From positions 1-64,000 of the forward strand of contig JALSOQ010000005.1 of assembly GCA_026986375.1 (NCBI GenBank): a stretch of 64,000 bases of DNA, in the 5' to 3' direction. Below are positions 6,420-33,527 of the stretch, piece after piece. This stretch comes from Archaeoglobaceae archaeon (GTDB lineage: Archaea > Halobacteriota > Archaeoglobi > Archaeoglobales > Archaeoglobaceae). Every line of letters starts with the position of its first letter. Within the stretch, counting starts at the first letter, position 1. The notes beneath the pieces were generated by a model that searched no databases, had not been told where the DNA came from, and was given only the letters and a program-made list of their open reading frames with translations. Both the position numbers and the translations under genes were made by a program.

Positions 6420-7533
6420 GGAGGAAGAGAAATTACTCGAATCCGATAATCCGGCTGTGGCGAAGTGCATGGAGATCTTAGTAGCCTTAGGTGAGATTTT
6501 CGGTGCCGACAGACTTATTCCGATTGTGTCCGCTCACATATCCGGAATATCCTACGAGAACATAGGGGAAGAGGGTTTGGAGTGGTTGAAGAGTCTGAAG
6601 GCGAAGGTTAAGGTCAAAACTACGGTAAATCCGGCCGGAATGGACTCGGAAAGATGGAGAGAGATGGGGATAGATGAGGATTTTGCAAGGAAGCAGACGG
6701 AAGTCCTGAAAGCTCTGGTCGATTTGGGTGCCGAATTGACCCTCACATGCACTCCATATTACGTTTACAAACCCAATTTCGGAGATCATTTAGCTTGGGC
6801 GGAATCTTCAGCTGTGGTTTACGCCAACTCGGTTTTGGGTGCTATGACGAACAGGGAAAGTGGAATAAGCGCCTTAGCTTCCGCTATAATAGGAAAAACC
6901 CCTCGATACGGTTTGCATGTTAAGGAGAATAGGGCTCCGACCGTTTTAGTTAAGGTTAAGGAGGACCTAAACCCGTCCGCGTTGGGAGTCGTTTTAGGGA
7001 GAGAGTTGGATGGGATTCCGATTTTCGAGTTCGGGAGGAAGCTGAGGGATCACGAACTCAAGCAGTTGGGAGCCTCACTCGCATCAACCGGAAACGTAGC
7101 CATCTTCCACGTGATCGGCCAGACTCCAGAATGGAGGGACTTCGAAATTCCGAAGGAGAAGTTGGAGGTGGACGAAGCCGATGTTAGGGACGAATGCGAT
7201 CCAGACTTGATAGCGTTGGGCTGTCCTCATCTATCATCGGAAGAGATCATGGAGGTTTTGAGATTCGTCGAGAGAAGAGGAAGGCCAAAGATCTCGGTGT
7301 GGATATTCACGTCCCGCCACGTTTACGAGGAGATGAAAGAGGTCGTGGAAAAGTTGGAGAGGTGCGGAATAAAGGTATTCAGAGACACATGCATGGTGGT
7401 TTCTCCGGCAACCGAAAAGTTCGAATGCGTTATGGTAGATTCGGGTAAGGCTTTAACTTACCTTCCGAAGCTCAGGGGGGTTAAGGCGATGTTCGGGACT
7501 ACGGAGGAATGTCTGAGGAGGGCGTTCGAATGA
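6406..7533 (+). CDS. Phosphomevalonate dehydratase large subunit (aconitase X)
   Basis: The AcnX catalytic domain (COG1679) spans the full 375 residues. With the small subunit encoded next, it dehydrates 5-phosphomevalonate to trans-anhydromevalonate 5-phosphate in the archaeal mevalonate pathway, which supplies isoprenoid lipid precursors. Family features visible are TLTCTPYYVYKPNFGDHLAWAES cut as TCTPYY then GDHLAWAES, the GAMTNRESG loop and the C-terminal KVFRDTCMVVSP; cysteines in these blocks bind the iron-sulfur cluster in characterised enzymes. It shares an ATGA junction with the small subunit. Confidence 0.88.
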   Translation: MDLSREEEKLLESDNPAVAKCMEILVALGEIFGADRLIPIVSAHISGISYENIGEEGLEWLKSLKAKVKVKTTVNPAGMDSERWREMGIDEDFARKQTEVLKALVDLGAELTLTCTPYYVYKPNFGDHLAWAESSAVVYANSVLGAMTNRESGISALASAIIGKTPRYGLHVKENRAPTVLVKVKEDLNPSALGVVLGRELDGIPIFEFGRKLRDHELKQLGASLASTGNVAIFHVIGQTPEWRDFEIPKEKLEVDEADVRDECDPDLIALGCPHLSSEEIMEVLRFVERRGRPKISVWIFTSRHVYEEMKEVVEKLERCGIKVFRDTCMVVSPATEKFECVMVDSGKALTYLPKLRGVKAMFGTTEECLRRAFE

Positions 7534-7943
7534 GGATCAAGGGGAGGGTGATATCGAAGGGGGTTGCGGAAGGCGTTGCAATAGTGAGCAGAAAGAAGTT
7601 CTCGTTTTTGGGAGACGTCGATGTTGAAACCGGTATCGTGATTGCGGAGGACAGCGACATCTTAGGAGAATCGATAGCCGACAAGGTCTTCGTCTTTCCG
7701 ACCGGCAGAGGTTCAACCGTTGGAACTTACGTTCTGCTCAGAATGAAGAAGAAGGGGACCGCTCCAAAAGCGATAATAAACGTCGAAACCGAGCCTATAA
7801 TAGCGGTCGGGGCGATAATAGCCGGGATACCGCTGATGGATAAACTCGAAGTAAATCCGCTCGAAACGATTAAATCGGGTGACATCGTTAGGGTGAACGC
7901 TTTAGAGGGATGGGTTGAAGTCCATGGAGATCGAAAGGATTAA
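7530..7943 (+). CDS. Phosphomevalonate dehydratase small subunit (AcnX swivel domain)
   Basis: The 137-residue product from ATG 7530 matches the DUF126/aconitase X swivel domain: MRIKGRVISKGVAEG at the start, FPTGRGSTVGTYVLL in the middle, and the EPIIAVGAIIAGIPLMD segment. It pairs with the large subunit to close the active site. The start codon overlaps the large-subunit stop (ATGA), the tight coupling expected for a 1:1 complex. Confidence 0.88.
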   Translation: MRIKGRVISKGVAEGVAIVSRKKFSFLGDVDVETGIVIAEDSDILGESIADKVFVFPTGRGSTVGTYVLLRMKKKGTAPKAIINVETEPIIAVGAIIAGIPLMDKLEVNPLETIKSGDIVRVNALEGWVEVHGDRKD

Positions 7944-8955
7944 GGAAAGACTCGAAGAGGACTTCATAGTTTACGATTTGGAGGTTTTGGAGGACGGAGT
8001 TAGGTTCTACCTCCATCCCAAGCGTGAGATCGGTAAAGATCTGAAGCTCTTCCTAACCGAGCTTTCCGGGGAATACCACGTCGAATTCAGGGAGAGATAC
8101 GGGGAACTTGTTTTGGAGGTCAGGAGGGCTAAGAAGGAAAAGGTGTGGATAAACGTCATTCTGCTCATCGCGACGATATGCTCCACGACGCTCATGGGAG
8201 CTACGATGTTCGAAAGGTTCGACATTTTAGGCGGATTCATGTTCTCTCTTGCCGTAATGTTCGTTTTGGGAAGCCACGAGATGGGGCACTACTTGGCGGC
8301 AAGAAGGTGGAGAATGAGGACTTCCCTTCCCTACTTCATCCCGTTCCCGACGATAATCGGAACTCTGGGAGCGATAATAAAGCATAAAGGCCCCATTCCG
8401 AACAGAAAGGCTCTATTCGACGTGGGAGTTTCCGGGCCTCTTGTAGGAATAATAGCTTCGATCATAGTGATAGTTATAGGACTGAAGATTCCGTTCAGGC
8501 CGGAGAAGGTTGGGGAGTTCATGATAGTCCTGGGAAGTCCTCCCCTCTTCGAAATCATAGCGAAGCTCGTTGGATACGAAGGAAAGTTCATACATCCGAT
8601 AGCTTTCGCTGGCTGGGTGGGGCTGTTCGTAACCTTCCTGAACCTCATTCCGGTCGGGCAGTTGGACGGAGGGCACATAATGAGGGCAATGATAGGGAAG
8701 AAGGCGGAATTCGTATCCAAAATTATGCCGGCAGTTTTGATAACGGTCGGTTTCGCCGTCAGCTACATCTACGACGTTCCCGACTCGATATGGGTCTTCT
8801 GGGGCTTGATAACGGTGTTCTTCGCCATGCAACCCCATCCAGAGCCGATGGACGACGAAACTCCTTTGGACGGAAAGAGAATAGCTTTGGGCGTTTTAAC
8901 GTTCCTGGTCGGTCTGATGTGCTTTACTCCCGTTCCTTTTAGAGTCGTAACATAA
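7924..8955 (+). CDS. Site-2-protease-like M50 membrane metalloprotease
   Basis: A multi-span membrane protein of 343 residues. After a soluble N-terminal domain (1-70) come hydrophobic helices carrying the zinc-binding HEMGH motif ([11 protein letters not shown]) and the third ligand in [15 protein letters not shown], the LDG signature of intramembrane zinc proteases. It resembles the EGY1/S2P group. The start at ATG 7924 overlaps the dehydratase small-subunit gene by 20 bases; a TTG at 7915 is possible. Its 3' end overlaps the opposing XPB gene by 60 bases. Substrates are unknown. Confidence 0.85.
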
Positions 8956-20936: not shown

Positions 20937-22685
20937 GTGTGGGAGCAGTTGTCTGACGTTGAAAATTGGGTTAAAACAAGGTATATAGTTCTCGTCAAGG
21001 AGCTTGGAAACAAACCGTTCAGGTTAGAAGACGCTGAGAGGGTTTTGAAGAGTGCTGGGATAGACACTGGAAACGTAAAGGAGCTTTTGTCAATTCTAAG
21101 AAAAAAGGGATTACTCGAAGTTGAAAAGGATCCTAATGATTTTAGGAGGAGCATTTACAGACTGCTTTTTGTCGATGAAAAATCGGTAAGTCCGACAAGA
21201 GATAAGCTATTCAAAACGCTTAAGGCTGGAGCAGATCTCATAAGGGGTGGAGTCGATTATAAAGTCCTCCTCGTCTTCCTGTTTTACAAAGCCTTGAGTG
21301 ATAAATGGAACGCTCTTGTTGAGAAATACATTAAAGAAGGATTTACGAAAACTCAAGCTTATCTCCTCGCGAACAGCGAATACTACGTTCTTTACGATGA
21401 AAACGAGCAAAAGCTCCTAACTTGGCATGAGATAACGAAGAGTAGAGAGACAATTACCGAGCTTGCTAACGCGTTGACGAGGATTTCGAGGCTTAACGAG
21501 AAGCTTTCCGATTTGGAGAAGCTCGTTGAAGTTCTTGGGCTGAAGGGGTTTATAAGCGAGGACAACTTGCATACAATCGAAAGCATAATTCAGATATTCA
21601 ACAGCCTCGATTTCTCGAAAATACCCTACGATATAATAGGAGACGCCTACATGTGGGTTTTGAACTACTTCGCTCCTCAGAAGGCTAAGGAAGGTGAGAA
21701 CTACACACCCATTGAGATAGTCAGGTTGGTCGTCAGCCTTTTGGACATCGAAATAGGGAATGGAGAGGTGACGGTGCTGGATCCAGCTTTAGGTTCTGGT
21801 AGTATGCTCATAGTTTCCCGCGATTACGTTAGGGAGAAGTATGGAGAGGAAGGTGTGGAAAAGCTTATGCTCTATGGACAGGAAAGAAATGAGATAATGG
21901 GAGTTATAGCCAAGATGAACTTAATTCTCCACGACATAAAGAACTACGAGATTTACATCGGTGATAGTCTGGCTAATCCAAGATTCCCGCAATGCGATTA
22001 TGTAGTAGCTAACCCGCCGTGGAATCAGGATTACAACGTAAACGGACTGATCGAAGATCCGAAGGTTAAGAAGATTTACACCCAGTTCGTTAACGTTCTC
22101 CCTCCAAAGAATTCAATGGACTGGGGATGGATTCAGCTCATGCTTTACTTTGCTAAGAGAAAAGTCGGAATCATTCTTGACAACGGTGCTCTGTTTAGGG
22201 GAGGGAAGGAGAAGAGGATAAGGGAGGCGATAGTTAGAAGGGATCTTATCGAGGCTGTTGTTTTACTTCCTGAGAAGCTCTTCTACAATACTGGAGCTCC
22301 GGGAGTCGTTATAATTTTCAACAAGGAAAAGCCTGAGGATAGGAAGGGCAAAATCCTGTTCATAAATGCGAGCAACGAATACGAGAAGCATCCAGAGGTT
22401 AGAAGGCTGAACAGGCTTGGGGAAAAGAACATTGAGAAAATCGTGAAAGCTTACAGAGAGTTTAAAGATGTCGAGGGTTTTGCAAGGGTTGTTAGCATTG
22501 AGGAGGTTGCAAGGAACGACTACAACCTGAACGTTACGCTCTACGTAATGCCTATTGAGGAAGGTGAAAAGATAGACATTGCTAAGGAGTTCGGAGAACT
22601 GAAGAAGATTGAAGCGGAGAGGAACGAGGTAATGGCTAAGCTTGACGATTACATTAACGGTATAATTAGAGCTTTGGGTGAATAG
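20937..22685 (+). CDS. hsdM: Type I R-M modification subunit HsdM, catalytic copy
   Basis: An N6-adenine methyltransferase of 582 residues. Residues 1-80 form an added winged-helix-like domain (KPFRLEDAERVLKSAG, ELLSILRKKGLLEVE) that the second HsdM lacks. HsdM_N follows (about 85-230). The SAM-binding motif I is VLDPALGSGSMLI (about 280-292), and the catalytic motif IV is intact as ANPPW (Asn359-Trp362). With HsdS it should methylate one strand of a bipartite target. It starts at GTG 20937 and is followed after one base by a membrane-protein gene. Confidence 0.92.
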   Translation: MWEQLSDVENWVKTRYIVLVKELGNKPFRLEDAERVLKSAGIDTGNVKELLSILRKKGLLEVEKDPNDFRRSIYRLLFVDEKSVSPTRDKLFKTLKAGADLIRGGVDYKVLLVFLFYKALSDKWNALVEKYIKEGFTKTQAYLLANSEYYVLYDENEQKLLTWHEITKSRETITELANALTRISRLNEKLSDLEKLVEVLGLKGFISEDNLHTIESIIQIFNSLDFSKIPYDIIGDAYMWVLNYFAPQKAKEGENYTPIEIVRLVVSLLDIEIGNGEVTVLDPALGSGSMLIVSRDYVREKYGEEGVEKLMLYGQERNEIMGVIAKMNLILHDIKNYEIYIGDSLANPRFPQCDYVVANPPWNQDYNVNGLIEDPKVKKIYTQFVNVLPPKNSMDWGWIQLMLYFAKRKVGIILDNGALFRGGKEKRIREAIVRRDLIEAVVLLPEKLFYNTGAPGVVIIFNKEKPEDRKGKILFINASNEYEKHPEVRRLNRLGEKNIEKIVKAYREFKDVEGFARVVSIEEVARNDYNLNVTLYVMPIEEGEKIDIAKEFGELKKIEAERNEVMAKLDDYINGIIRALGE

Positions 22686-22686
22686 T

Positions 22687-23055
22687 ATGAGCAACAGAAT
22701 TTTGAGAGCTTTTTATTCTCTTTTCTTTATTCCAGGAATGATGACAGGAATATCTATCAAAACAGGCGTAGATGTTAGTGAATTCGGAATAGCTTCCTTA
22801 ATTTTAGAAACTTTCTGTAAGGTGTTACAGTCACCGGCCTGTGTATTTCCACCAATTCTTTCCTTGGTGGGGATTTTAATGACAATAATTCCATTTGCAT
22901 ATTTCTTTTTCACAGAAAACATTTTTGGTTTAATTCTGGGAATTTTATTCTTTATAAGTGGACTTCTTTTAGTCTTCATACCCAATATCGCTGTTTTCAT
23001 CTTTTTATTCTCTGTCTTAACGTTAATTATTTATCCAGAGGGGGTGAGTATATGA
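22687..23055 (+). CDS. Small membrane protein inserted between hsdM and hsdS
   Basis: The 122-residue protein from ATG 22687 has three to four hydrophobic helices (about 8-22, 50-76, 78-98, 100-116) and few charges. I do not recognise it. It starts one base after the hsdM stop (GGTGA ribosome site in the hsdM end) and its own stop overlaps the hsdS start (ATGA). Such placement is not part of the standard hsdMSR layout. It may be a cargo gene that hitched into the operon, or an accessory of the restriction system. Confidence 0.7.
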   Translation: MSNRILRAFYSLFFIPGMMTGISIKTGVDVSEFGIASLILETFCKVLQSPACVFPPILSLVGILMTIIPFAYFFFTENIFGLILGILFFISGLLLVFIPNIAVFIFLFSVLTLIIYPEGVSI

Positions 23056-24323
23056 GTGTTGACTTCTACAAGGAGACCGAGTTTAAAGAAGTGGATTTGA
23101 ACGGTAAAGTTGTTGAGATTCCGAAGGATTGGGAGGTTGTTAAACTAATTGATTATGTTAATGTGCTCAAAGGTTTTGCTTTTAGTTCTAAATTCTTTAA
23201 CGAAAACGGCAAAGGAATCCCAATAATAAGAATAAGGGATTTAGGAAAAAATAAAACAGAAGCTTATTATTCTGGTCCGTATGACCCGCTATATATTGTG
23301 GAGAGTGGTGATTTGCTGGTAAGCATGGACGGTGAATTTAACATATATATTTGGAAGGGTCCAAGGGGACTCTTAAATCAAAGAGTGTGTAAAATTTGGA
23401 CTAAAGATGCAATGAAATTAGACAACATGTATCTTTATTATTCATTGAAAAAACCGCTTAAATTCATTGAAGCTCAGACCAGTCAAACAACAGTTAAACA
23501 TCTCCTTGATAGAGATATAGAAAGGATAAAAATCCCACTTCCACCCCTCCCAGAACAACAAAAAATCGCCGAAATTCTCAGCACAATAGACAAAGCGATA
23601 GAGCTAACCGACAAGATAATAGCGAAGACTGAAAGGCTGAAGAAGGGATTAATGCAGGAGCTACTCAGCGGGAGGATTAGGGTTAAAGTTGAGAACGGTA
23701 GGATTAGCTTTTACAAGGAAACTCAGTTCGAAAATGCTGAGATTGGCAAGGTTCCAGAGGATTGGAAGGTTGTTAGGCTTGGAAATTATGCAGATGTTAT
23801 TATGGGACAATCACCACCATCTTCCACCTATAATACAGAACAAAATGGTTTACCATTTTTGCAGGGGTGTGCAGAGTTTGGTGAAATTTATCCAAAACCT
23901 AAAATTTATTGTTCAAATCCAATAAAAATAGCAGAACCTAACGATATTCTTCTCTCAGTTAGAGCACCAGTTGGTGAAGTAAATATAGCACCGTTTAAAT
24001 GCTGTATCGGTAGAGGATTATCAGCCATCAGAACTAAAGAAAATAAGCTACATTATATGTTTTTGTTTTATTATCTCAAATTTAATGGTAAAGTATTCGA
24101 AAAAATCGCAACAGGTTCAACCTTTAAGGCAATTAAGAAAAATGATATTGAAAACCTACAAATCCTGCGCCCACCGCTCGAAGAACAGAAGAAAATAGCT
24201 CAAATTCTATCAACTGTAGATAAAAAACTTGAAATCGAAAGAAAGGAGAAAGAAAAGCTTGAGAGGATAAAGAAAGGACTTATGGATATTTTGCTAACTG
24301 GGAAAGTGAGAGTGAGAGTATGA
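23052..24323 (+). CDS. hsdS: Type I R-M specificity subunit HsdS
   Basis: A 423-residue subunit with the classic two-fold plan. Target-recognition domain 1 (about 25-160) is followed by a conserved helix (PLPPLPEQQKIAEILSTID, about 165-215). Domain 2 (about 235-370) is followed by the second conserved helix (RPPLEEQKKIAQILSTVDKK). Each domain reads half of the split DNA target, and the two helices set the spacing. It is coupled by 4-base overlaps to the genes on both sides. The two recognition domains differ in sequence, so the target should be asymmetric. Confidence 0.92.
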   Translation: MSVDFYKETEFKEVDLNGKVVEIPKDWEVVKLIDYVNVLKGFAFSSKFFNENGKGIPIIRIRDLGKNKTEAYYSGPYDPLYIVESGDLLVSMDGEFNIYIWKGPRGLLNQRVCKIWTKDAMKLDNMYLYYSLKKPLKFIEAQTSQTTVKHLLDRDIERIKIPLPPLPEQQKIAEILSTIDKAIELTDKIIAKTERLKKGLMQELLSGRIRVKVENGRISFYKETQFENAEIGKVPEDWKVVRLGNYADVIMGQSPPSSTYNTEQNGLPFLQGCAEFGEIYPKPKIYCSNPIKIAEPNDILLSVRAPVGEVNIAPFKCCIGRGLSAIRTKENKLHYMFLFYYLKFNGKVFEKIATGSTFKAIKKNDIENLQILRPPLEEQKKIAQILSTVDKKLEIERKEKEKLERIKKGLMDILLTGKVRVRV

Positions 24324-25843
24324 TCTCAGAGATTGACCTCGAAAAGAAGCTAAAAGAGCAAATAAAGGTTATAGCCGATGAATACTTAGGAGGAGATTTG
24401 GATTATAAAGTGCTACTAACACTTCTCTTTTACAAAGTTTTGAGCGATAAGTGGTTAGCGAAGGTTGAAGAATATATGAAAGAATTCCCTGAGACACAAG
24501 CCTATATCCTCGCAAATAGTGAATACTATGTCCTTTACGATGAAAGCGAGCAAAAACTCTTAACATGGCATAAAGCTGTAAAAGAGAGGGAAATCTCAAG
24601 CGTGATAAACAATCTTTCCAGAATCTTGAGATTAAATCCAGAGTTTGACAAAATAGATGTATTAGTGAACAATCTAAGAACTTTTACCGCTCCAGAGTAT
24701 ATAGAGAGACTAAACGGAATTATCAATGGACTTAGCATGATCGACTTCTCCAAAACTCCATCCAAAGTTCTAAACTCCTTATTTATGTGGATGCTCAGCA
24801 ATTATGTTCCTGAGGAAAAACCAAAAACAAAGGAGAAATCAGAGAAGAAAGGAGAGGAATTTCGAGTTACTCCTCCTGAAGTGGGCATGCTACTAGTTAA
24901 ACTTCTCGATATAGAACCAAATTCCTCTGTTCTAGACCCCGCATTAGGTTCTGGGAGTTTTCTCGTCTATGCTTACAGGCATGTTGAAGAAAAATATGGA
25001 GATTCACAAATCATGCTTTATGGGCAGGAAATAACAAAATCGATAGCAGCCATAGCAAAAATTAACCTCATTTTGAACGATATAAAGAACCATGAGATTT
25101 TCGTTGGAGATAGTTTATCGAATCCGCAATTCAGCAATGTCGATTATGCTCTTACGGATCCAAGGTGGAATCAAAAATATCCTGTAGAAGAATTAAGAAA
25201 TAATCCAAAAGTAAAAGCAATCTATACCACATACGTAACCGACGGATTTCCGCCAAAGAATTCAATGGATTGGGGGTGGATTCAACTCCTATTATACTTC
25301 TCTAAGAAAAAAGCTGGGATAGTAATCGACAACGGAGCATTATTTAGGACAAATACCAAAATAGAGAAAACCATAAGAAAAGAAATCGTGGAAAGAGATC
25401 TTATCGAAGCAATTGTCCAACTTCCTCCGAAAATATTTGACAAAAGTGAAAGAACAGGAGTTATAATTATATTTAACAAAAATAAACCAAAAGAAAGAAA
25501 AGAAAAAATTCTTTTCATAAATGCGAGCAATGAATATGAGAAGCATCCAGAAATTCCTGCTATGAATAGACTCGGTGAAAAGCACATTGAGAAGATCGTC
25601 AACGTTTATCGCAAATTTGAGAGTATTGACGGATTTTCGAGAGTTGTAAGCCTTGATGAGATTGCTAAGAATGATTACAATCTAAACGTCACTCTTTATG
25701 TAATGCCAGTTGAAGAAGAGGAAAAAATCGATCTTGAGAAAGAACTGATTGAACTTATAGAATGTGAAAAAGACAGGAATGAACTCACCTCAAAAATAAA
25801 AGAAATAACTAAAAATATTGTAACAGCATTGAAAGGAGGATAA
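24320..25843 (+). CDS. Second HsdM paralogue with altered catalytic motif (DPRW)
   Basis: A 507-residue paralogue of the upstream HsdM, aligning along its length apart from the N-terminal winged helix. The SAM-binding motif I is preserved (VLDPALGSGSFLV), but the catalytic NPPW is replaced by D280-P-R-W283 (ALTDPRW). In adenine methyltransferases this motif holds the target base, so loss of the second proline and of Asn probably cripples catalysis. A role as a structural or regulatory partner within an M-M'-S complex is an inference. Codon use is more AT-rich than the first copy. It overlaps hsdS by 4 bases. Confidence 0.88.
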   Translation: MISEIDLEKKLKEQIKVIADEYLGGDLDYKVLLTLLFYKVLSDKWLAKVEEYMKEFPETQAYILANSEYYVLYDESEQKLLTWHKAVKEREISSVINNLSRILRLNPEFDKIDVLVNNLRTFTAPEYIERLNGIINGLSMIDFSKTPSKVLNSLFMWMLSNYVPEEKPKTKEKSEKKGEEFRVTPPEVGMLLVKLLDIEPNSSVLDPALGSGSFLVYAYRHVEEKYGDSQIMLYGQEITKSIAAIAKINLILNDIKNHEIFVGDSLSNPQFSNVDYALTDPRWNQKYPVEELRNNPKVKAIYTTYVTDGFPPKNSMDWGWIQLLLYFSKKKAGIVIDNGALFRTNTKIEKTIRKEIVERDLIEAIVQLPPKIFDKSERTGVIIIFNKNKPKERKEKILFINASNEYEKHPEIPAMNRLGEKHIEKIVNVYRKFESIDGFSRVVSLDEIAKNDYNLNVTLYVMPVEEEEKIDLEKELIELIECEKDRNELTSKIKEITKNIVTALKGG

Positions 25844-25847
25844 GATC

Positions 25848-28800
25848 ATGCCCCTCCAATCCGAAAGTGCAGTTCACGAAGAGATAAAGAAAAAACTCAT
25901 CGAAATCGGATGGAAAGACGGAAATGTAGAACTTAAAATACCTGAGCACACCTTAATTGAACACAACTACATCCCCGAAATCGTTGAGAAAAAAGTTAAG
26001 GAAATAAATCGAGACAAATTTTCGAAATTAACGAAGGAAGAGGAAAGAGAAGTTATCGAAACCATTTTCAACGAACTCAACTCTGGAGAAGAGAGGATTC
26101 TCAACTACCTAAAATACGGCGTCAAAGTTAATGTTAAATCTGAAATTCTTACGTTTCACCTAATCGATCATGAGAACGTAAGGAAGAATTACTTCTTCTT
26201 CCTCCATGAAGCCAAGTTTAAGGGATCTCCAGATAACATAAAACCCGACTTCACCTTATTCATCAACGGAATTCCCGTGGTGATAATAGAAGCCAAATCC
26301 GAATCCGTTCCTTTCTCCCATTCCCAAGCTTTGAAAGATATAAGAACTTACGAGATGTATTCTCCCGATCTCTTCAGATTCGTTCAGTTTGGAGTTGCTT
26401 ACGGTGATGAGAAACGTTACACTCCAACGCTACCAAACTGGGACAAGAAAGAAAGGGATAGCTATTCATTCAATTGGGACGATATCTTCGATCTTCTAAA
26501 GCCCTCAAGGGTTGTCGAATTCATCAAATACTTCATATTCTTCTGGAGACCAAGGGAAGGAGAGAAAAAGAAGCTTATGGCAAGGCTGAACCAGTATAGA
26601 GCCACGATAAAAGCGATGAAAAGAATAGAAGAACACATGAACGGGGGAAAGAACAGAGGACTTATATGGCACTGGCAAGGAAGCGGTAAAACTTTCACGA
26701 TGTTCTTCATAGCGAACTACTTCTTAGATCGCTACTACGACAAAAACCCGGTAATCTTCTTCGTCGTGGACAGGCAAGACCTCGAAAGACAGCACGACGA
26801 AGTTCTGAAATCCGTTCAGGATGAAAAGTTCAGAAGTCTCTATAAGAAGATCGAAAGTATTGAAGAGCTTTGTAGGATTGTGGAAACTTTAAAGGAGAGC
26901 GAATTTTCATCCAATATAATCCCAAGGGGAATTTACCTAACGACGATTCAAAAGTTCCAGAGAGGAGAAGTTTCAGATGGTTTAACGGAAAAAGCTGATG
27001 AGGAAGCATCTCAAAAACTCTACGGTTTATTGCTCAAGCTCTCTAAAAGATATCTGGATTTCTTAAGGAAAGAAAAACCCGAAGAATACGAAAAGATAAT
27101 TCAAGAGATTTCTAGGTTAGGCGATAAGGACAAAGAAATTTATCTCCTCAAACTTGGAGGGGTAAGAAGTAGGAGTATTCTCTTTTTAATAGATGAAGCT
27201 CACAGAAGCCAATACGGGTTGCTGGGAGCGATGAGAAAGAAATGCTTTCCAAACGCTGTAACGTTTGGCTTCACAGGAACGCCGATATTCAAAGATGAGA
27301 GAAACACGTTTTTTGAGTTCTCCTATCCAAACGAGGGAGAGTATTATTTGGATGTCTATTTCATCGGAGATTCGATAAGAGACGGTTTCACGTTGCCGAT
27401 AGTTTTCGACGTTGTAAAGGAGGGAGATGTCAAGGCTGAAGGTGTTCAAATAAAACTCAGCGAGGAAGAAATAGCTGGATTTATCAGAGAATACATGGAA
27501 AACAAAGGAAATATCGAAAGATTGCTCGAAGCTAAGATCACCCAGAAAGATATCCGAAGATACATAACGAAAGTTAAGGTAATCCTCCTAAATCCTGCGA
27601 GGATAGACAAGCTTGCAAAGTATATCGTCGATAGGATTGAAAAGGATACGGAGAACTTCAAGTTTAAAGCAATGGTCGTAGCTGTTAATCGATTAGGTTG
27701 CGTGAGATACAAAAAGGCTTTAGACAAGTATCTTGTTGAAAAATTCGGGGAAGAAGCGAAGAATTGGGTAGAAATAGTAATGACATACAACTACAAGGAA
27801 GATGAGAAGGAAATTCTTGAATACATGGAAGAATTAAAGAAGAGAAGAGGCAACAAAGATTACAACGAGATAAACAGGGAAATACAGGACGAATTTAAAG
27901 AAAAGGAAAATCCGAGGATTCTTATCGTAACGGACATGCTATTAACTGGATTTGATGCTCCCCAGCTCAAGGTGATGTATTTGGACAAACCGCTCTACGA
28001 ACACAGACTTCTGCAGGCAATTGCAAGGGTTAACAGACCCTATAAGGACAAGGAGTTCGGGTTAATCGTTGATTCCGTTAGATTGATGGAGCATCTAACG
28101 AAAACTATGGCGATATACAACCTTTTAGCGGATGAACGTCCAGACATTAAAAAGGATCTTGAACTCAACTTAATGAGATCGATAGAGCAGATGTTCTCAG
28201 AGTTCAAAATTAAGTTTGAACAGCTTAAGAATGAACTGAAGAGTTTAAAGGTTGGAGATGAGGATGTAGGGATAGATCTCGATGCGGTAAAAGAGGCGTT
28301 GAAAACTGGAACTGGGAAAGAAGACATCCTTGCAAGGATAAAGATGCTCGCGATGTTACATACAGAAAGCGTTAGCCTATCTGCAAGAGTTATAAGACTT
28401 GTGAATGAGATGGGCACAATTTTAAAACTCTATAAAGCTCTGGGAGCGTATCCAGAGAAGATCGTTTACGTTGATGATATTCAAGCGCTTGCCTACCTGT
28501 ATTACAGATTAAAGGCAATCTTACAAGGAAAAACTGCAAAGCTTGGAAAAGAGTTTTGGAACGAGTTGCTATCCTACATTCACAATAGAACGATCGTTGA
28601 AGAGTTCAAGGAAATAGGAACGGTAAAAATTGAGCCTGAAAGGGTAGAAAAGCTGATTTCTGAACTTGCAGTCAGCGAGGAAGAACTTAGAAAGAGGATA
28701 GTAAACGAGCTTGCCGATTACTTCTTCTTTATACGGAACTTCGTAAGGGAAAGGATGCACGATCCCGTCTATAGGCAAATAGCTGAGAGAGTCGAGAGGT

Positions 28801-29177
28801 TGCGGATCGAATGGGTTACGAGAGCTATAAACACCAAGGTGTTCCTAGCAAAACTTAAGGCGATTGAAGATGAAATTAAGGATTACGAGAAGAAAATAGC
28901 GGGTAAGCCATTTTCCGATAGGTTAATAGAAACCATTAGCTATTACGTTAAGCAGAAAGCAGGAAAAGAGGTAGATTTCAAAGATACGAGAGCTTATCTG
29001 AACACTCTCGCTTCAAAGAAGTCAAAAATCTTGCCTCAGCAAGAAAAAGAATTAAGAACTAAAATTTTGATGGACTTGTTCCGGGCAGGCGTTGAAAGAG
29101 ATGCAGTAAAATTGGCTGGAGAGCTTGTAGATTACATCAAGGAGGAGTTTGATAGGTTATGGAGAGAAAGCAAGTGA
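25848..29177 (+). CDS. hsdR: Type I restriction subunit HsdR
   Basis: An 1109-residue translocating nuclease. The N-terminal PD-(D/E)XK nuclease lies about residues 135-165 (KPDFTLFINGIPVVIIEAKS). The helicase motor carries Walker A in WQGSGKTFT (about 275), DEAH in FLIDEAHRSQYG (about 448), TGTPIF, and motif VI in QAIARVNRPY (about 723). All catalytic motifs look intact, so restriction should be active if the complex assembles. The C-terminus is helical, for docking to HsdM. Its stop overlaps the metallopeptidase start by 19 bases. Confidence 0.93.
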   Translation: MPLQSESAVHEEIKKKLIEIGWKDGNVELKIPEHTLIEHNYIPEIVEKKVKEINRDKFSKLTKEEEREVIETIFNELNSGEERILNYLKYGVKVNVKSEILTFHLIDHENVRKNYFFFLHEAKFKGSPDNIKPDFTLFINGIPVVIIEAKSESVPFSHSQALKDIRTYEMYSPDLFRFVQFGVAYGDEKRYTPTLPNWDKKERDSYSFNWDDIFDLLKPSRVVEFIKYFIFFWRPREGEKKKLMARLNQYRATIKAMKRIEEHMNGGKNRGLIWHWQGSGKTFTMFFIANYFLDRYYDKNPVIFFVVDRQDLERQHDEVLKSVQDEKFRSLYKKIESIEELCRIVETLKESEFSSNIIPRGIYLTTIQKFQRGEVSDGLTEKADEEASQKLYGLLLKLSKRYLDFLRKEKPEEYEKIIQEISRLGDKDKEIYLLKLGGVRSRSILFLIDEAHRSQYGLLGAMRKKCFPNAVTFGFTGTPIFKDERNTFFEFSYPNEGEYYLDVYFIGDSIRDGFTLPIVFDVVKEGDVKAEGVQIKLSEEEIAGFIREYMENKGNIERLLEAKITQKDIRRYITKVKVILLNPARIDKLAKYIVDRIEKDTENFKFKAMVVAVNRLGCVRYKKALDKYLVEKFGEEAKNWVEIVMTYNYKEDEKEILEYMEELKKRRGNKDYNEINREIQDEFKEKENPRILIVTDMLLTGFDAPQLKVMYLDKPLYEHRLLQAIARVNRPYKDKEFGLIVDSVRLMEHLTKTMAIYNLLADERPDIKKDLELNLMRSIEQMFSEFKIKFEQLKNELKSLKVGDEDVGIDLDAVKEALKTGTGKEDILARIKMLAMLHTESVSLSARVIRLVNEMGTILKLYKALGAYPEKIVYVDDIQALAYLYYRLKAILQGKTAKLGKEFWNELLSYIHNRTIVEEFKEIGTVKIEPERVEKLISELAVSEEELRKRIVNELADYFFFIRNFVRERMHDPVYRQIAERVERLRIEWVTRAINTKVFLAKLKAIEDEIKDYEKKIAGKPFSDRLIETISYYVKQKAGKEVDFKDTRAYLNTLASKKSKILPQQEKELRTKILMDLFRAGVERDAVKLAGELVDYIKEEFDRLWRESK

Positions 29178-29488
29178 TAAGAATATTCAGAAGCGTAGTA
29201 AAAGAACTTGGAATTGAGGGTGTTAAAATTAGAATAACTCCGATGAAAAGAAAAGTTGCGTCTTTCTCGTTCAAAACTAAGACGTTAAGGCTGAACAGCA
29301 ACATAATTGATCTCCTCAACGAGGAACAACTAAAATTTATAATCTTTCACGAGCTAATCCACTTTAAAGTAAGAGACGTTAATCATGGGTCAAAGTTCCA
29401 TGAAGAACTTGAAAAGTATTACGATAAAGAAAAAACTGAGCAGATAGAGCTTGAAATTATCAAATCCCTGATATCAACCTTCTCATAG
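29159..29488 (+). CDS. YgjP/WLM-type metallopeptidase
   Basis: A 109-residue minimal zinc peptidase with FHELIHFKVRDVNHGSKF cut as HELIHFK (HExxH) and NHGSKFHEEL (third ligand region). This is the YgjP (DUF45) pattern. YgjP-like genes are often found next to type I restriction genes; their role is not established. It starts 19 bases inside hsdR and is the last gene of the operon. Confidence 0.8.
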   Translation: MERKQVIRIFRSVVKELGIEGVKIRITPMKRKVASFSFKTKTLRLNSNIIDLLNEEQLKFIIFHELIHFKVRDVNHGSKFHEELEKYYDKEKTEQIELEIIKSLISTFS

Positions 29489-30560: not shown

Positions 30561-33527
30561 TTAAGCATTTCGATTGATAATTCTTATTCGTATAACACTC
30601 TCCTTATAGCCGAATTCACTTATCAGAACCAAGAATTCACCATCATGTATTGAATACCTTCCCTTTTCCACGTATTCTCTGATCTTTTCTAGCTCCATTT
30701 CACGTAAATCGTCCAAGATCTGGATAACCGTTCCATCTGGCAATGTAATTACATTTTTCTCAGTTATTTCGTCCGTTTCCTCTTTAGTTTCAGCCTCCTC
30801 AGATTCCTCTCTAAGAAAATGATCTAACGAAGGTAAATCGCTTATCTTTCTCGTTCTCTTCCTTTTCCTATCATTCTTGGGCTTAACCACAATCTTTTCC
30901 TCGATTGGTGGAGTAAATTCGAAAGATTCTTCTATTTCCTTCTTTTCTTCCCTTACCAACTTATGAACTTCCTCTGGCCTATAAATCACGTCATTTTCCA
31001 GATCGTAAGCAAAAATTCTTATCTTAACCTTTAGATAATACGGAAGCTCCTCGTACAGTTTTAGTACTTTTTCGAGCTTATCTATGGGGATCCAAGTGTG
31101 GATCTCCATGAAATATTCGACACTTTCTTTCGTCCAGTTTCTCCATAATTGAGTTGGACATTTATCCGGTGTTGTAGTATCGATTTCAATGGCAATCGCT
31201 CTGAAGAAATCCAAATACCCTTCTGAGAGGGGGACAGCTATCAAATCAGGCCTCGGCTCTCCAACCAATTGTTTGGCGATGTCAACGCAGTATCCATTAG
31301 CAATGTAGAATTCAATAGCTTTTTCAGCTATTTTCCTACCTTCCTCAGACTTCGTGATCTTATCTATATTCTTGTGGAAATAGTACAGAACGGGATATGG
31401 ATCCTCAAGAAATGTAGTGCCGAATAAATCTTGTGAGTTCTTGCAGATGTTCAGCAGATCTTCAAGTCCTTTAGAGTGTTTTGCTCTATAGAGCAAATGC
31501 AATGAACGTTGCTTCGGTAATCTGAACGGACTGTTCATATACTTCAAAACAGGATGACCTACTCCTTCCAGTATATCATCGCTATCATCTTGTGGAGCGT
31601 ATTTTTCAGTGGTGATTTCTTCTCTTATTGGCTTATATGGAAAGTCATCGATTTTTATTAATGTCATTAAATGCGGTGTCATATTAAGATTAAATACTGC
31701 CATGCCATTGTTGGACATTAGCACATCCTCAAATGCTTCAATTCCTTCTATCAACCTTCTAACGTATTTATTCTCGACATGTAAGAGTATAATTGGATTA
31801 AATACGAACAGATATGCCAAATCCTGCAGATATAGCAAAGTCTTTTCGGATAGCTGTTCAATGCGTGTGTTTGCAAATATGAAGGCTATGTTATCATCTA
31901 AGAAGGAATCTCTCAGTATTCTTTCGAATATCTCAGCTCTTCTTCCAAGTGTGTATACTATGACTACGAAAATCCGTGACGATTCACCTCTTGATACTGA
32001 TTCAGACCAGATTCTAAACAGAACTGCTGTAAATATTCTATATGCCGTTTCCTCACCCAATTCTGATTCAGGAATGGAGAATAATGTTACTTTGCCGGGT
32101 TTTAGTATCTCATCGAGCGGAATCGTAGTCTTTGACGTTATTCTTCTCAGTATCCTGTTTTCTGCATAGGGCTTTAGTATGTTGAGTAAAAATGAGGACG
32201 ATTCCTTCGGTAACTCTCTAAAACTTATCATTTGCTCGTAGAGCTTCTCATCTTCGACACATACCAATCCTTCTCCAGCTAACTTGAATAGCCTATACAG
32301 TCTCGGTAATCCAACCGCTCCCTTATCGTAGAGTATTTTTACGGTGTTCTCAAGTATGTCCTTGATTCTTTGATCCCCAATATTGGTGCAGAGGATATCC
32401 TGCAACCTATTTACAACAATAGATTCTGCCTTGTCTTTACTGGATACTTTTGGTAGATCTAAGGGATTTACTCCAAACGGTGAGTCAGTTGGGTGGAGAT
32501 ATAAAGAATCGGGAATTTCTTTTGCAATCTTTTGTGCAATCTTCCCCTCCGTATCTAAAACTATTACCGCTCCTTCGTTACGTAAGTTGTGCACAAGAAT
32601 CCTTAATAATTGCATCGGATAATATCGAAATCCAGATGGACTCAGTATGTAGCAATAATAGAGATCGTCAGCAGGGATTATAGCATCATTACCATCTATC
32701 CATTTACCGATTCTAAAGCGGTTCTTTGATGATCTTATCAAAGGTTCCAAGTATTCTTTAGACGCTAAATAGTTCTCAAGCGCTATTAGATACTCTTCCG
32801 ATATCGGAAGACATAACCAAGATTTAAGACTTTTATACGTGCTTGTCAATCTTATCTTTTTTCCAATCTTAAGTTTAGAGTTTGGAGATTCCAACATTTT
32901 TAGTAAATCATCCCAAGTAACTTCGCTTAATTCCCATTTAATGTTCACAGTTGCATAATCCTTAATCAAATTCATCATACGTAATCTTCCCGCAAAATCT
33001 CTTGCGGCAATAATTAGATCAACGAGAACTGGTATATCTCGTAGCTTCATCTTTAATCTTTCCAACTCTTCATGAATTTCTTGCTCTTCGTCTTCATCCT
33101 CTGTTCTTTCCACCTTCCTCTCTAGCACTTTAATTCTGCTATCTATGACCTTATACAATTCCTCATCATGCTTTACGTTGATGATTACTACCACACCTTC
33201 CTGCTGTATTTCGTTTATTACTTCCTCGAAATTCTTGATTTCAAAATTGGATAGAATTGAGTTCTCTGCCACAGCTCGTGCAATGTGTATGTTCCCTCGC
33301 TTAAATAGCTTAAATGGTTGGTCGTTTTCATAAGATTCAGCGTTAAGAACTTTACGTAGCTTGTTTAACCAATAGTTATAGTCTCTCAGTGTTATAGCTG
33401 GAAAAGAATTCCAAATTTCACAAACCTCTTCCCTAGATAGGATCAAAGCTTTCAATACCCCATTCTCAACAAAATAGGCAATTGATAATCTATCTTCAAT
33501 TCTCAGCAAATCTTTCCTACTGTTCAC
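30561..33527 (-). CDS. TraG/VirD4-like ATPase homologue with lost Walker motifs, nuclease-like tail
   Basis: A 988-residue protein. Residues about 285-640 follow the order of TraG/VirD4/HerA-type conjugation ATPases: GAVIVLDTEGKIAQKIAKEI, FGVNPLDLP, IPLDEILKPGKVTLFSIP, SELGEETAYRIF. The P-loop position reads ILSPSGFRYYP (about 296) without GKS/T. The Walker B position reads VVIVYTLGRR (about 527) without the acidic pair. ATP hydrolysis is therefore unlikely. Near 758-780, RPDLIAV and RAIAIEID resemble a PD-(D/E)XK core with the Lys replaced. The N-terminal 280 residues and the charged tail are unassigned. It may be a scaffold of a DNA-transfer or replication complex. Confidence 0.6.
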   Translation of the reverse strand: MNSRKDLLRIEDRLSIAYFVENGVLKALILSREEVCEIWNSFPAITLRDYNYWLNKLRKVLNAESYENDQPFKLFKRGNIHIARAVAENSILSNFEIKNFEEVINEIQQEGVVVIINVKHDEELYKVIDSRIKVLERKVERTEDEDEEQEIHEELERLKMKLRDIPVLVDLIIAARDFAGRLRMMNLIKDYATVNIKWELSEVTWDDLLKMLESPNSKLKIGKKIRLTSTYKSLKSWLCLPISEEYLIALENYLASKEYLEPLIRSSKNRFRIGKWIDGNDAIIPADDLYYCYILSPSGFRYYPMQLLRILVHNLRNEGAVIVLDTEGKIAQKIAKEIPDSLYLHPTDSPFGVNPLDLPKVSSKDKAESIVVNRLQDILCTNIGDQRIKDILENTVKILYDKGAVGLPRLYRLFKLAGEGLVCVEDEKLYEQMISFRELPKESSSFLLNILKPYAENRILRRITSKTTIPLDEILKPGKVTLFSIPESELGEETAYRIFTAVLFRIWSESVSRGESSRIFVVIVYTLGRRAEIFERILRDSFLDDNIAFIFANTRIEQLSEKTLLYLQDLAYLFVFNPIILLHVENKYVRRLIEGIEAFEDVLMSNNGMAVFNLNMTPHLMTLIKIDDFPYKPIREEITTEKYAPQDDSDDILEGVGHPVLKYMNSPFRLPKQRSLHLLYRAKHSKGLEDLLNICKNSQDLFGTTFLEDPYPVLYYFHKNIDKITKSEEGRKIAEKAIEFYIANGYCVDIAKQLVGEPRPDLIAVPLSEGYLDFFRAIAIEIDTTTPDKCPTQLWRNWTKESVEYFMEIHTWIPIDKLEKVLKLYEELPYYLKVKIRIFAYDLENDVIYRPEEVHKLVREEKKEIEESFEFTPPIEEKIVVKPKNDRKRKRTRKISDLPSLDHFLREESEEAETKEETDEITEKNVITLPDGTVIQILDDLREMELEKIREYVEKGRYSIHDGEFLVLISEFGYKESVIRIRIINRNA

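What the first reader, a model, noticed from the sequence alone, without database searches (positions are those of the whole stretch)
20937..25843. Type I R-M operon with an active HsdM and a second HsdM whose catalytic motif is DPRW
Sequence shows two full-length HsdM paralogues flanking hsdS in one operon. The first keeps ANPPW; the second keeps the SAM loop but has D280-P-R-W283. Known type I methyltransferases use two identical HsdM with one HsdS. Inference: here they may form an asymmetric M-M'-S complex in which one half-site is methylated and the other only bound, giving a hemimethylation-aware or brake function. A non-adenine or DNA-binding role of M' is an alternative.
Basis: partly seen in the sequence, partly recalled or inferred. 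Interest (0 to 1): 0.72.

Follow-up and report, generated by a model that had tools for sequence, protein, structure and literature searches.

The report
Restriction operon with divergent second methyltransferase
This archaeal DNA-defence operon pairs a normal DNA-methylating subunit with an altered sister copy that has probably lost or changed its chemistry, and comparable altered sister copies arose separately in similar operons of salt-loving archaea and bacteria, which suggests that some of these enzymes deliberately work with two unlike halves.

Summary
A complete type I R-M operon (M1, small ORF, S, M2, R, metallopeptidase) carries two HsdM paralogues, 54% identical. M2 reads D280-P-R-W283 where M1 has N359-P-P-W. 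It is not a sequencing error: an M2 orthologue (75% identical) beside an 83%-identical M1 has DPQW, and M2 shows saturated synonymous but few amino-acid changes, like HsdR.

Heterodimeric M1M2S type I enzymes are known (PacII type, NPPF/NPPY, m6A on one strand and m4C on the other). M2 is not of that type: it arose by a separate duplication. In 180 HsdM sequences the first residue of motif IV is N except in two, both second HsdMs of paired operons.

Similarly eroded second HsdMs arose independently, usually as M-S-M'-R, in haloarchaea and in an IMG/VR contig, and in Salinibacter. They lost several of the same near-invariant residues, above all the arginine equivalent to PacII R29. Active PacII-type M2s keep those residues.

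Best reading: an asymmetric M1-S-M2 complex with a catalytically impaired M2 that keeps its SAM site and S-binding tail. Altered but active M2 remains possible. The hemimethylation or brake function is untested. New variant of a known kind.

The parts
20937..22685 (+). hsdM1 (M1): N6-adenine methyltransferase subunit with an extra N-terminal segment of about 85 aa; NPPW intact
   Evidence: Pfam N6_Mtase 1.3e-96 and HsdM_N; 83-87% identical orthologues in L078 and L038
21243..21245 (+). M1 Arg103, equivalent to PacII M2 Arg29 (reaches the partner's catalytic pocket in the PacII structure); kept in M1, absent from M2
   Evidence: role from PMC9613975
22011..22022 (+). M1 catalytic motif IV N359-P-P-W
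22678..23055 (+). small hydrophobic ORF (125 aa), overlapping the end of M1 and the start of S; no family match; not between M and S in L078
23052..24323 (+). hsdS: two target-recognition domains with repeated conserved regions
   Evidence: Methylase_S, two stretches
24320..25843 (+). hsdM2 (M2, M'): divergent second HsdM; starts 4 bases inside the end of hsdS
24851..24874 (+). M2 motif X region GEEF-RV-TP: 2-residue insertion relative to the family pattern G-E-x-[YF]-T-P; also in the L077 orthologue
24935..24958 (+). M2 SAM motif I DPALGSGS, intact
25157..25168 (+). M2 catalytic motif IV D280-P-R-W283 (family N-P-P-[FYW]); DPQW in the L077 orthologue
25439..25456 (+). M2 loop DKSERT after the cage phenylalanine F373, replacing YNTGAP of M1
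25848..29177 (+). hsdR (1109 aa), HSDR_N and SWI2/SNF2 domains present
   Evidence: NCBIfam hsdR 4.9e-166
29159..29488 (+). YgjP/SprT-like metallopeptidase, overlapping the end of hsdR; also after hsdR in L077, L082, pHOS300, pSR56

Best explanation
This is a type I restriction-modification system whose methyltransferase core is most likely an asymmetric M1-S-M2 heterotrimer. M1 is the working N6-adenine methylase. M2 arose by duplication of the same hsdM, keeps the fold, the SAM site and the C-terminal tail that binds HsdS, and takes the second M position, but its catalytic pocket is remodelled (N to D and P to R/Q in motif IV, a 2-residue insertion after the motif X aromatic, a changed loop after F373) and it lacks the arginine that reaches the partner's pocket in the PacII structure. 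I think M2 is catalytically impaired or dead and serves as a structural, DNA-holding partner, so that one half-site is methylated by M1 and the other is mainly bound. Shown: the paired genes, the altered motif, its conservation in an orthologue, purifying selection, and independent origin of comparable second HsdMs. Inferred: complex composition, loss of catalysis, one-strand methylation.
For: Motif IV position 1 is N in 178 of 180 HsdM; the two exceptions (this M2; Salinibacter WP_013060232.1) are both second HsdMs of paired operons. Of 43 columns at least 90% conserved among 144 reference HsdM, window M2 departs in 14, the other second HsdMs in 9-11, their partners in 2-5, and active-type PacII M2s (21 sequences) in 0-1. 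So second HsdMs of the catalytically active type stay conserved while this class does not. The Arg equivalent to PacII R29 is absent from every second HsdM of this class with residues aligned there and is R/K elsewhere except in one remote sequence. Four columns depart in all three independent lineages (window, L055, L152); 0.83 expected, P=0.004 by uniform shuffling. In archaeal M.PtoI (NPPW), N360A/W363A severely compromises methylation (PMC10050889). In PacII, M2 pocket mutants lose m4C but largely keep m6A, so a dead second M is mechanically tolerable (PMC9613975). M2 is under purifying selection like HsdR: pN 0.144 against 0.145, pS saturated. The AlphaFold2 model of M2 (pLDDT 90.5) is closest to the PacII M subunits (TM 0.72-0.76) and contains the long C-terminal helix.
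Against: M2 keeps the SAM motifs and aromatics at three pocket positions (PacII F180, Y288 and F373 are F, W and F in M2), and D is used first in motif IV by other methyltransferases, so activity on A or C is not excluded. In G063 the second M has an ANPPW core through gene conversion from the first, so the second position can hold an intact motif IV. With HsdR present, one-strand-only methylation would leave unmodified daughter sites after replication, a hazard that needs an explanation. Assembly of M1 with M2 was not tested.
Confidence: 0.5

Rival explanations
1. M2 is an active methyltransferase with altered chemistry or target: the M1-S-M2 heterotrimer modifies both strands, M1 making m6A and M2 making m4C or m6A through a D-P-x-W motif, as a separately evolved counterpart of PacII-type systems.
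For: Heterotrimeric m6A/m4C type I enzymes exist (PMC9613975). M2 keeps the SAM motifs and the pocket aromatics, and D280, P281 and W283 are the same in both known M2s while position 282 is R or Q. The third motif position tolerates M in 21 NPMW HsdM. It removes the post-replication hazard.
Against: PacII-type active M2s keep N and the other invariant residues (0-1 departures of 43), whereas M2 departs in 14 of 42; the loop after F373 is replaced and differs between the two M2s.
Confidence: 0.27
2. M1-M1-S is the real modification enzyme; M2 is an optional accessory, for example an alternative partner or regulator that changes the restriction or modification balance.
For: Close relatives have M1, S and R without M2: Ferroglobus-size genome G024 (M1 87% identical) and L082 (R about 90-93%, M2 missing between S and R). 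In Salinibacter pSR56 the second HsdM has lost its C-terminal S-binding tail and most of motif IV, which suits a role outside the trimer.
Against: L082 is full of frameshifts and may be degenerate or badly assembled. Window M2 keeps its C-terminal helix and its start codon overlaps the hsdS stop, as if co-translated for assembly. M2 evolves under the same constraint as HsdR.
Confidence: 0.17
3. M2 is a decaying duplicate without function.
For: High divergence at family-conserved positions.
Against: Open reading frame intact; pN 0.144 with saturated synonymous sites against the L077 orthologue; motif I, the motif II and III residues and the altered motif IV conserved between the two; orthologous operon order kept.
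Confidence: 0.04

Closest known systems
PacII-type non-canonical type I methyltransferase (M1M2S; Zhu et al. 2022, PMC9613975, building on its reference 12)
   Same: Two different full-length HsdM paralogues in one operon with one HsdS; closest solved structures to the M2 model (7vs4_B, 7vru_B).
   Different: Gene order M1-M2-S-R in the PacII-type pairs seen here, against M-S-M2-R in the window; PacII-type M2 is NPPY with [AQ]EFYTN and keeps all invariants; the window pair comes from a separate duplication (AU p 8e-7).
Classical type I methyltransferase M2S (EcoR124I, EcoKI; archaeal M.PtoI with NPPW)
   Same: M1 is an ordinary HsdM with an N-terminal extension; its NPPW starts at 359, close to 360-363 in M.PtoI.
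   Different: A second, divergent HsdM is present in the operon.
Haloarchaeal M-S-M'-R-SprT operons (Halorientalis sp. IM1011 pHOS300; genome G152)
   Same: Same gene order including the metallopeptidase in pHOS300; M' has lost the R29-equivalent Arg, and has H to N and A to T.
   Different: M' motif IV is TNFPY with N kept; separate duplication.
Division of labour in dimeric or heterodimeric amino-methyltransferases (EcoP15I Mod2, PMC4490356; METTL3-METTL14, from own knowledge)
   Same: Idea of one subunit catalysing while the paralogous or identical partner holds the nucleic acid.
   Different: Analogy only; not type I, no sequence claim.

Membership tests
Type I restriction-modification system | Linked hsdR, hsdM and hsdS with full domains | tested here: met
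   N6_Mtase twice, Methylase_S, HSDR_N with SWI2/SNF2
Type I restriction-modification system | HsdS with two target-recognition domains and two conserved repeats | tested here: met
   two Methylase_S stretches; internal repeat also seen
Type I restriction-modification system | ATP-dependent cleavage of unmodified DNA and modification of a bipartite site | not testable with these tools
   needs biochemistry or methylome
PacII-type m6A/m4C M1M2S subgroup | Two different HsdM in one operon with one HsdS | tested here: met
PacII-type m6A/m4C M1M2S subgroup | M1 NPPF with AGEF, M2 NPPY with AAEF | tested here: not met
   window: NPPW with GENY; DPRW with GEEF-RV
PacII-type m6A/m4C M1M2S subgroup | M2 of the same descent as PacII-type M2 | tested here: not met
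   separate duplications; one-clade constraint rejected
PacII-type m6A/m4C M1M2S subgroup | Arg29 in M2 | tested here: not met
   absent from window M2, present in M1
Active gamma-class amino-methyltransferase (M2) | SAM-binding motif I | tested here: met
   DPALGSGS
Active gamma-class amino-methyltransferase (M2) | Motif IV beginning with N in HsdM | tested here: not met
   D in window M2 and its orthologue; N in 178 of 180 HsdM
Active gamma-class amino-methyltransferase (M2) | Methylation activity | not testable with these tools
   needs expression and methylome

The most novel reading that the evidence does not exclude
Type I restriction enzymes have repeatedly evolved a dedicated pseudo-methyltransferase subunit (M') that replaces one of the two HsdM, making a heterotrimer with one catalytic and one non-catalytic half, comparable in principle to METTL3-METTL14, with one-strand methylation and an altered rule for telling self from foreign DNA.
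Probability: 0.38. Interest if true: 0.78.

Novelty: new variant of a known kind. Interest (0 to 1): 0.6.

Why it matters
If M2 does not methylate, this type I enzyme marks only one strand yet must spare newly replicated host DNA, which would challenge the standard model of hemimethylated-site protection. If M2 is active with D-P-x-W, it is a separately evolved second chemistry in type I enzymes. Either way the recurrence of eroded second HsdMs in about four separate lineages, with shared losses in several of them, defines a testable class; members on plasmids of cultured Halorientalis sp. IM1011 and Salinibacter ruber M8 make it directly testable by methylome sequencing.

Tried and rejected
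Sequencing error or pseudogene: rejected by the L077 orthologue with D at the same place and by saturated synonymous against low amino-acid change. Membership of the PacII m6A/m4C subgroup: rejected on motifs and tree. A single origin of all divergent second HsdMs: rejected (AU p 1.3e-6). Window-specific recent duplication: rejected (AU p about 1e-46). L082 as proof that M2 is dispensable: not accepted, because the contig carries many frameshifts and a deletion in M1; gain or loss of M2 there cannot be told from the junction. Willcock 1994 (EcoKI motif mutants) and Morgan 2016 are not held, so nothing is claimed from their text. The PacII paper says R29 is not conserved in M1-type subunits; in my alignments the corresponding Arg/Lys is present in PacII-type M1s too; I report the discrepancy and do not rest the case on it.

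Full report
1. Observation. The operon is as described: hsdM1 (20937-22685), hsdS (23052-24323), hsdM2 (24320-25843), followed directly by hsdR (25848-29177) and a YgjP/SprT-like metallopeptidase gene (29159-29488). A 125-aa hydrophobic ORF sits between hsdM1 and hsdS and overlaps both; it has no family match. M1 and M2 are 54% identical. Motif IV is N359-P-P-W in M1 and D280-P-R-W283 in M2, codons GAT CCA AGG TGG. Motif I (DPALGSGS) is intact in both.

2. Reality of the change. Contigs DQTF01000212.1 and DQTF01000107.1, from one metagenome assembly (labelled Crocinitomicaceae; probably carrying foreign contigs, inference), hold S-M2-R-peptidase and M1-S respectively: M1 83% identical, M2 74-75%, R 76%. 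That M2 reads TDPQWNQ, with the same 2-residue insertion GEEF-RV-TP. Between the two M2s synonymous differences are saturated while pN is 0.144, the same as HsdR (0.145) and above M1 (0.096). M2 is therefore a maintained gene. One frameshift in the L077 copy is present in that assembly; it was not repaired, and its two pieces were joined with XX between them for the trees.

3. Host and spread. The window lies in a 1.46-Mb genome of 30 contigs. Four genomes of the same genus lack the system, and transposase-like and integrase-like ORFs lie upstream, which suits horizontal acquisition. Within the family, G024 (size of Ferroglobus placidus) has M1 (87%), S and R but no M2; G063 has M-M-S-R.

4. 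Origin of the pair. A tree of 26 HsdM without converted stretches puts M1s, M2s and both G063 HsdMs in one clade (100/100). The PacII-type pairs and the haloarchaeal L055 pair are separate duplications. In G063 the stretch from motif IV to VIII of the second HsdM is 98-100% identical in DNA to the first, against about 40-60% in several flanking stretches: gene conversion has given it ANPPW. Outside those stretches it groups with M2 (96/96; the alternative is not firmly rejected, AU p 0.076). A 60-row tree that did not remove those stretches instead put both G063 HsdMs together, as conversion would predict. Whether the common ancestor of the M2s had N or D is unknown.

5. Comparison with known heterodimers. 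PacII-type M1M2S enzymes are established: M1 with NPPF makes m6A, M2 with NPPY makes m4C, and M2 pocket mutants lose m4C but largely keep m6A (PMC9613975). Such pairs recur here as NPPF/GEFYTP plus NPPY/[AQ]EFYTN. Mapped on PacII M2, pocket residues F180, N285, P286, P287, Y288 and F373 become F, D, P, R, W and F in window M2, and F, D, P, Q, W and F in the orthologue. So the SAM site and aromatic clamp persist, while the hydrogen-bonding Asn and a cage proline change.

6. A class of eroded second HsdMs. I counted departures at 43 positions that are at least 90% conserved in 144 reference HsdM. Window M2 has 14, L152 M' 11, L055 M' 10 and the G063 second M 9; partners have 2-5; PacII-type M2s have 0-1; references have a median of 1. 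L152 (IMG/VR contig 2671180652_000008) is M(NPPF)-S-M'(NPKF, cage F lost)-GIY-YIG-R. L055 and Halorientalis sp. IM1011 plasmid pHOS300 are M(NFPF)-S-M'(TNFPY)-R, with SprT following R in pHOS300. Salinibacter ruber M8 plasmid pSR56 has M-S-ATPase-R-SprT-M', where M' reads ADLPP for ANFPF and has lost its C-terminal tail; it is 44% identical to its own M. M' of the window, haloarchaeal and L152 lineages fall beside their own M; one common origin is rejected (p 1.3e-6). The Salinibacter M' was not placed in a tree; its independence rests on pairwise identity.

7. Shared losses. The Arg at the PacII R29 position is absent from all these second HsdMs with residues aligned there, and is R/K elsewhere except in one remote sequence. 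M1 D232 changes to K, K, Q and H332 to N, N, N in window, L152 and L055. Four columns depart in all three lineages against 0.83 expected (P=0.004, uniform shuffle, which ignores that columns differ in variability). In PacII, R29 of M2 reaches the M1 pocket and R29A lowers both modifications, which the authors take as inter-subunit communication. The loss in M' therefore suggests that M' no longer signals to the partner pocket; this is inference.

8. Mechanism. I commit to an asymmetric M1-S-M2 complex with M2 catalytically impaired (0.5). An active M2 with changed chemistry (0.27) and an accessory M2 beside M1-M1-S (0.17) remain. HsdR is present with full domains, so strict one-strand methylation creates a post-replication hazard that either an active M2 or M1-M1-S would avoid; this is the main reason the confidence is not higher. 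The hemimethylation-sensing or brake idea is compatible but has no direct evidence.

9. Structure. AlphaFold2 of M2 (pLDDT 90.5, pTM 0.85) is nearest to the PacII M subunits (7vs4_B, 7vs4_A, 7vru_B, 7vru_A; TM 0.72-0.76) and then to classical HsdM; a long C-terminal helix (472-506) is predicted. No complex could be modelled.

10. Novelty. I found no paper in the held library on a divergent or inactive second HsdM in type I systems; the library lacks most subscription papers and REBASE. Verdict: new variant of a known kind.

Noticed in passing
22678-23055: 125-aa hydrophobic, probably membrane-spanning ORF inserted between hsdM1 and hsdS with overlapping ends; no homologue among the fetched loci and not between M and S in L078.
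   Followed up: partly
29159-29488; L077, L082, L211, L216, L214, L215: A YgjP/SprT-like metallopeptidase gene follows or overlaps hsdR in several archaeal and bacterial type I operons (also Vibrio and Haloferax plasmids); its role is not obvious.
   Followed up: partly
L038:7911-10259: In the Ferroglobus-size genome G024 the close relative of this operon has a 782-aa ORF that looks Argonaute/Piwi-like, with small nucleotidyltransferase/HEPN-like ORFs, between hsdM and hsdS. No family search was run on it.
   Followed up: no
L037:5405-8447: Two adjacent hsdM genes in G063 share a stretch of about 315 bp at 98-100% identity (motif IV to VIII) amid 40-60% identical flanks: gene conversion over the catalytic core.
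   Followed up: yes
L216:1978-3366 and 7247-8689: Salinibacter ruber pSR56: a tail-less second HsdM with ADLPP for ANFPF, and an HSP90/gyrase-type ATPase gene between hsdS and hsdR.
   Followed up: partly
L059 (G099): M-S-M'(90-aa fragment)-S-R in a record whose length (100,258) equals that of the Haloquadratum walsbyi C23 plasmid: looks like a remnant of a second HsdM.
   Followed up: no
30561-33527 (- strand): 988-aa protein without a Pfam or NCBIfam match next to the operon; function unknown.
   Followed up: no
haloarchaeal single HsdM, e.g. L060-L073: Many single-HsdM type I systems have NPMW or NFPF instead of NPPF/Y/W, so the second and third residues of motif IV vary in single-HsdM systems.
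   Followed up: partly
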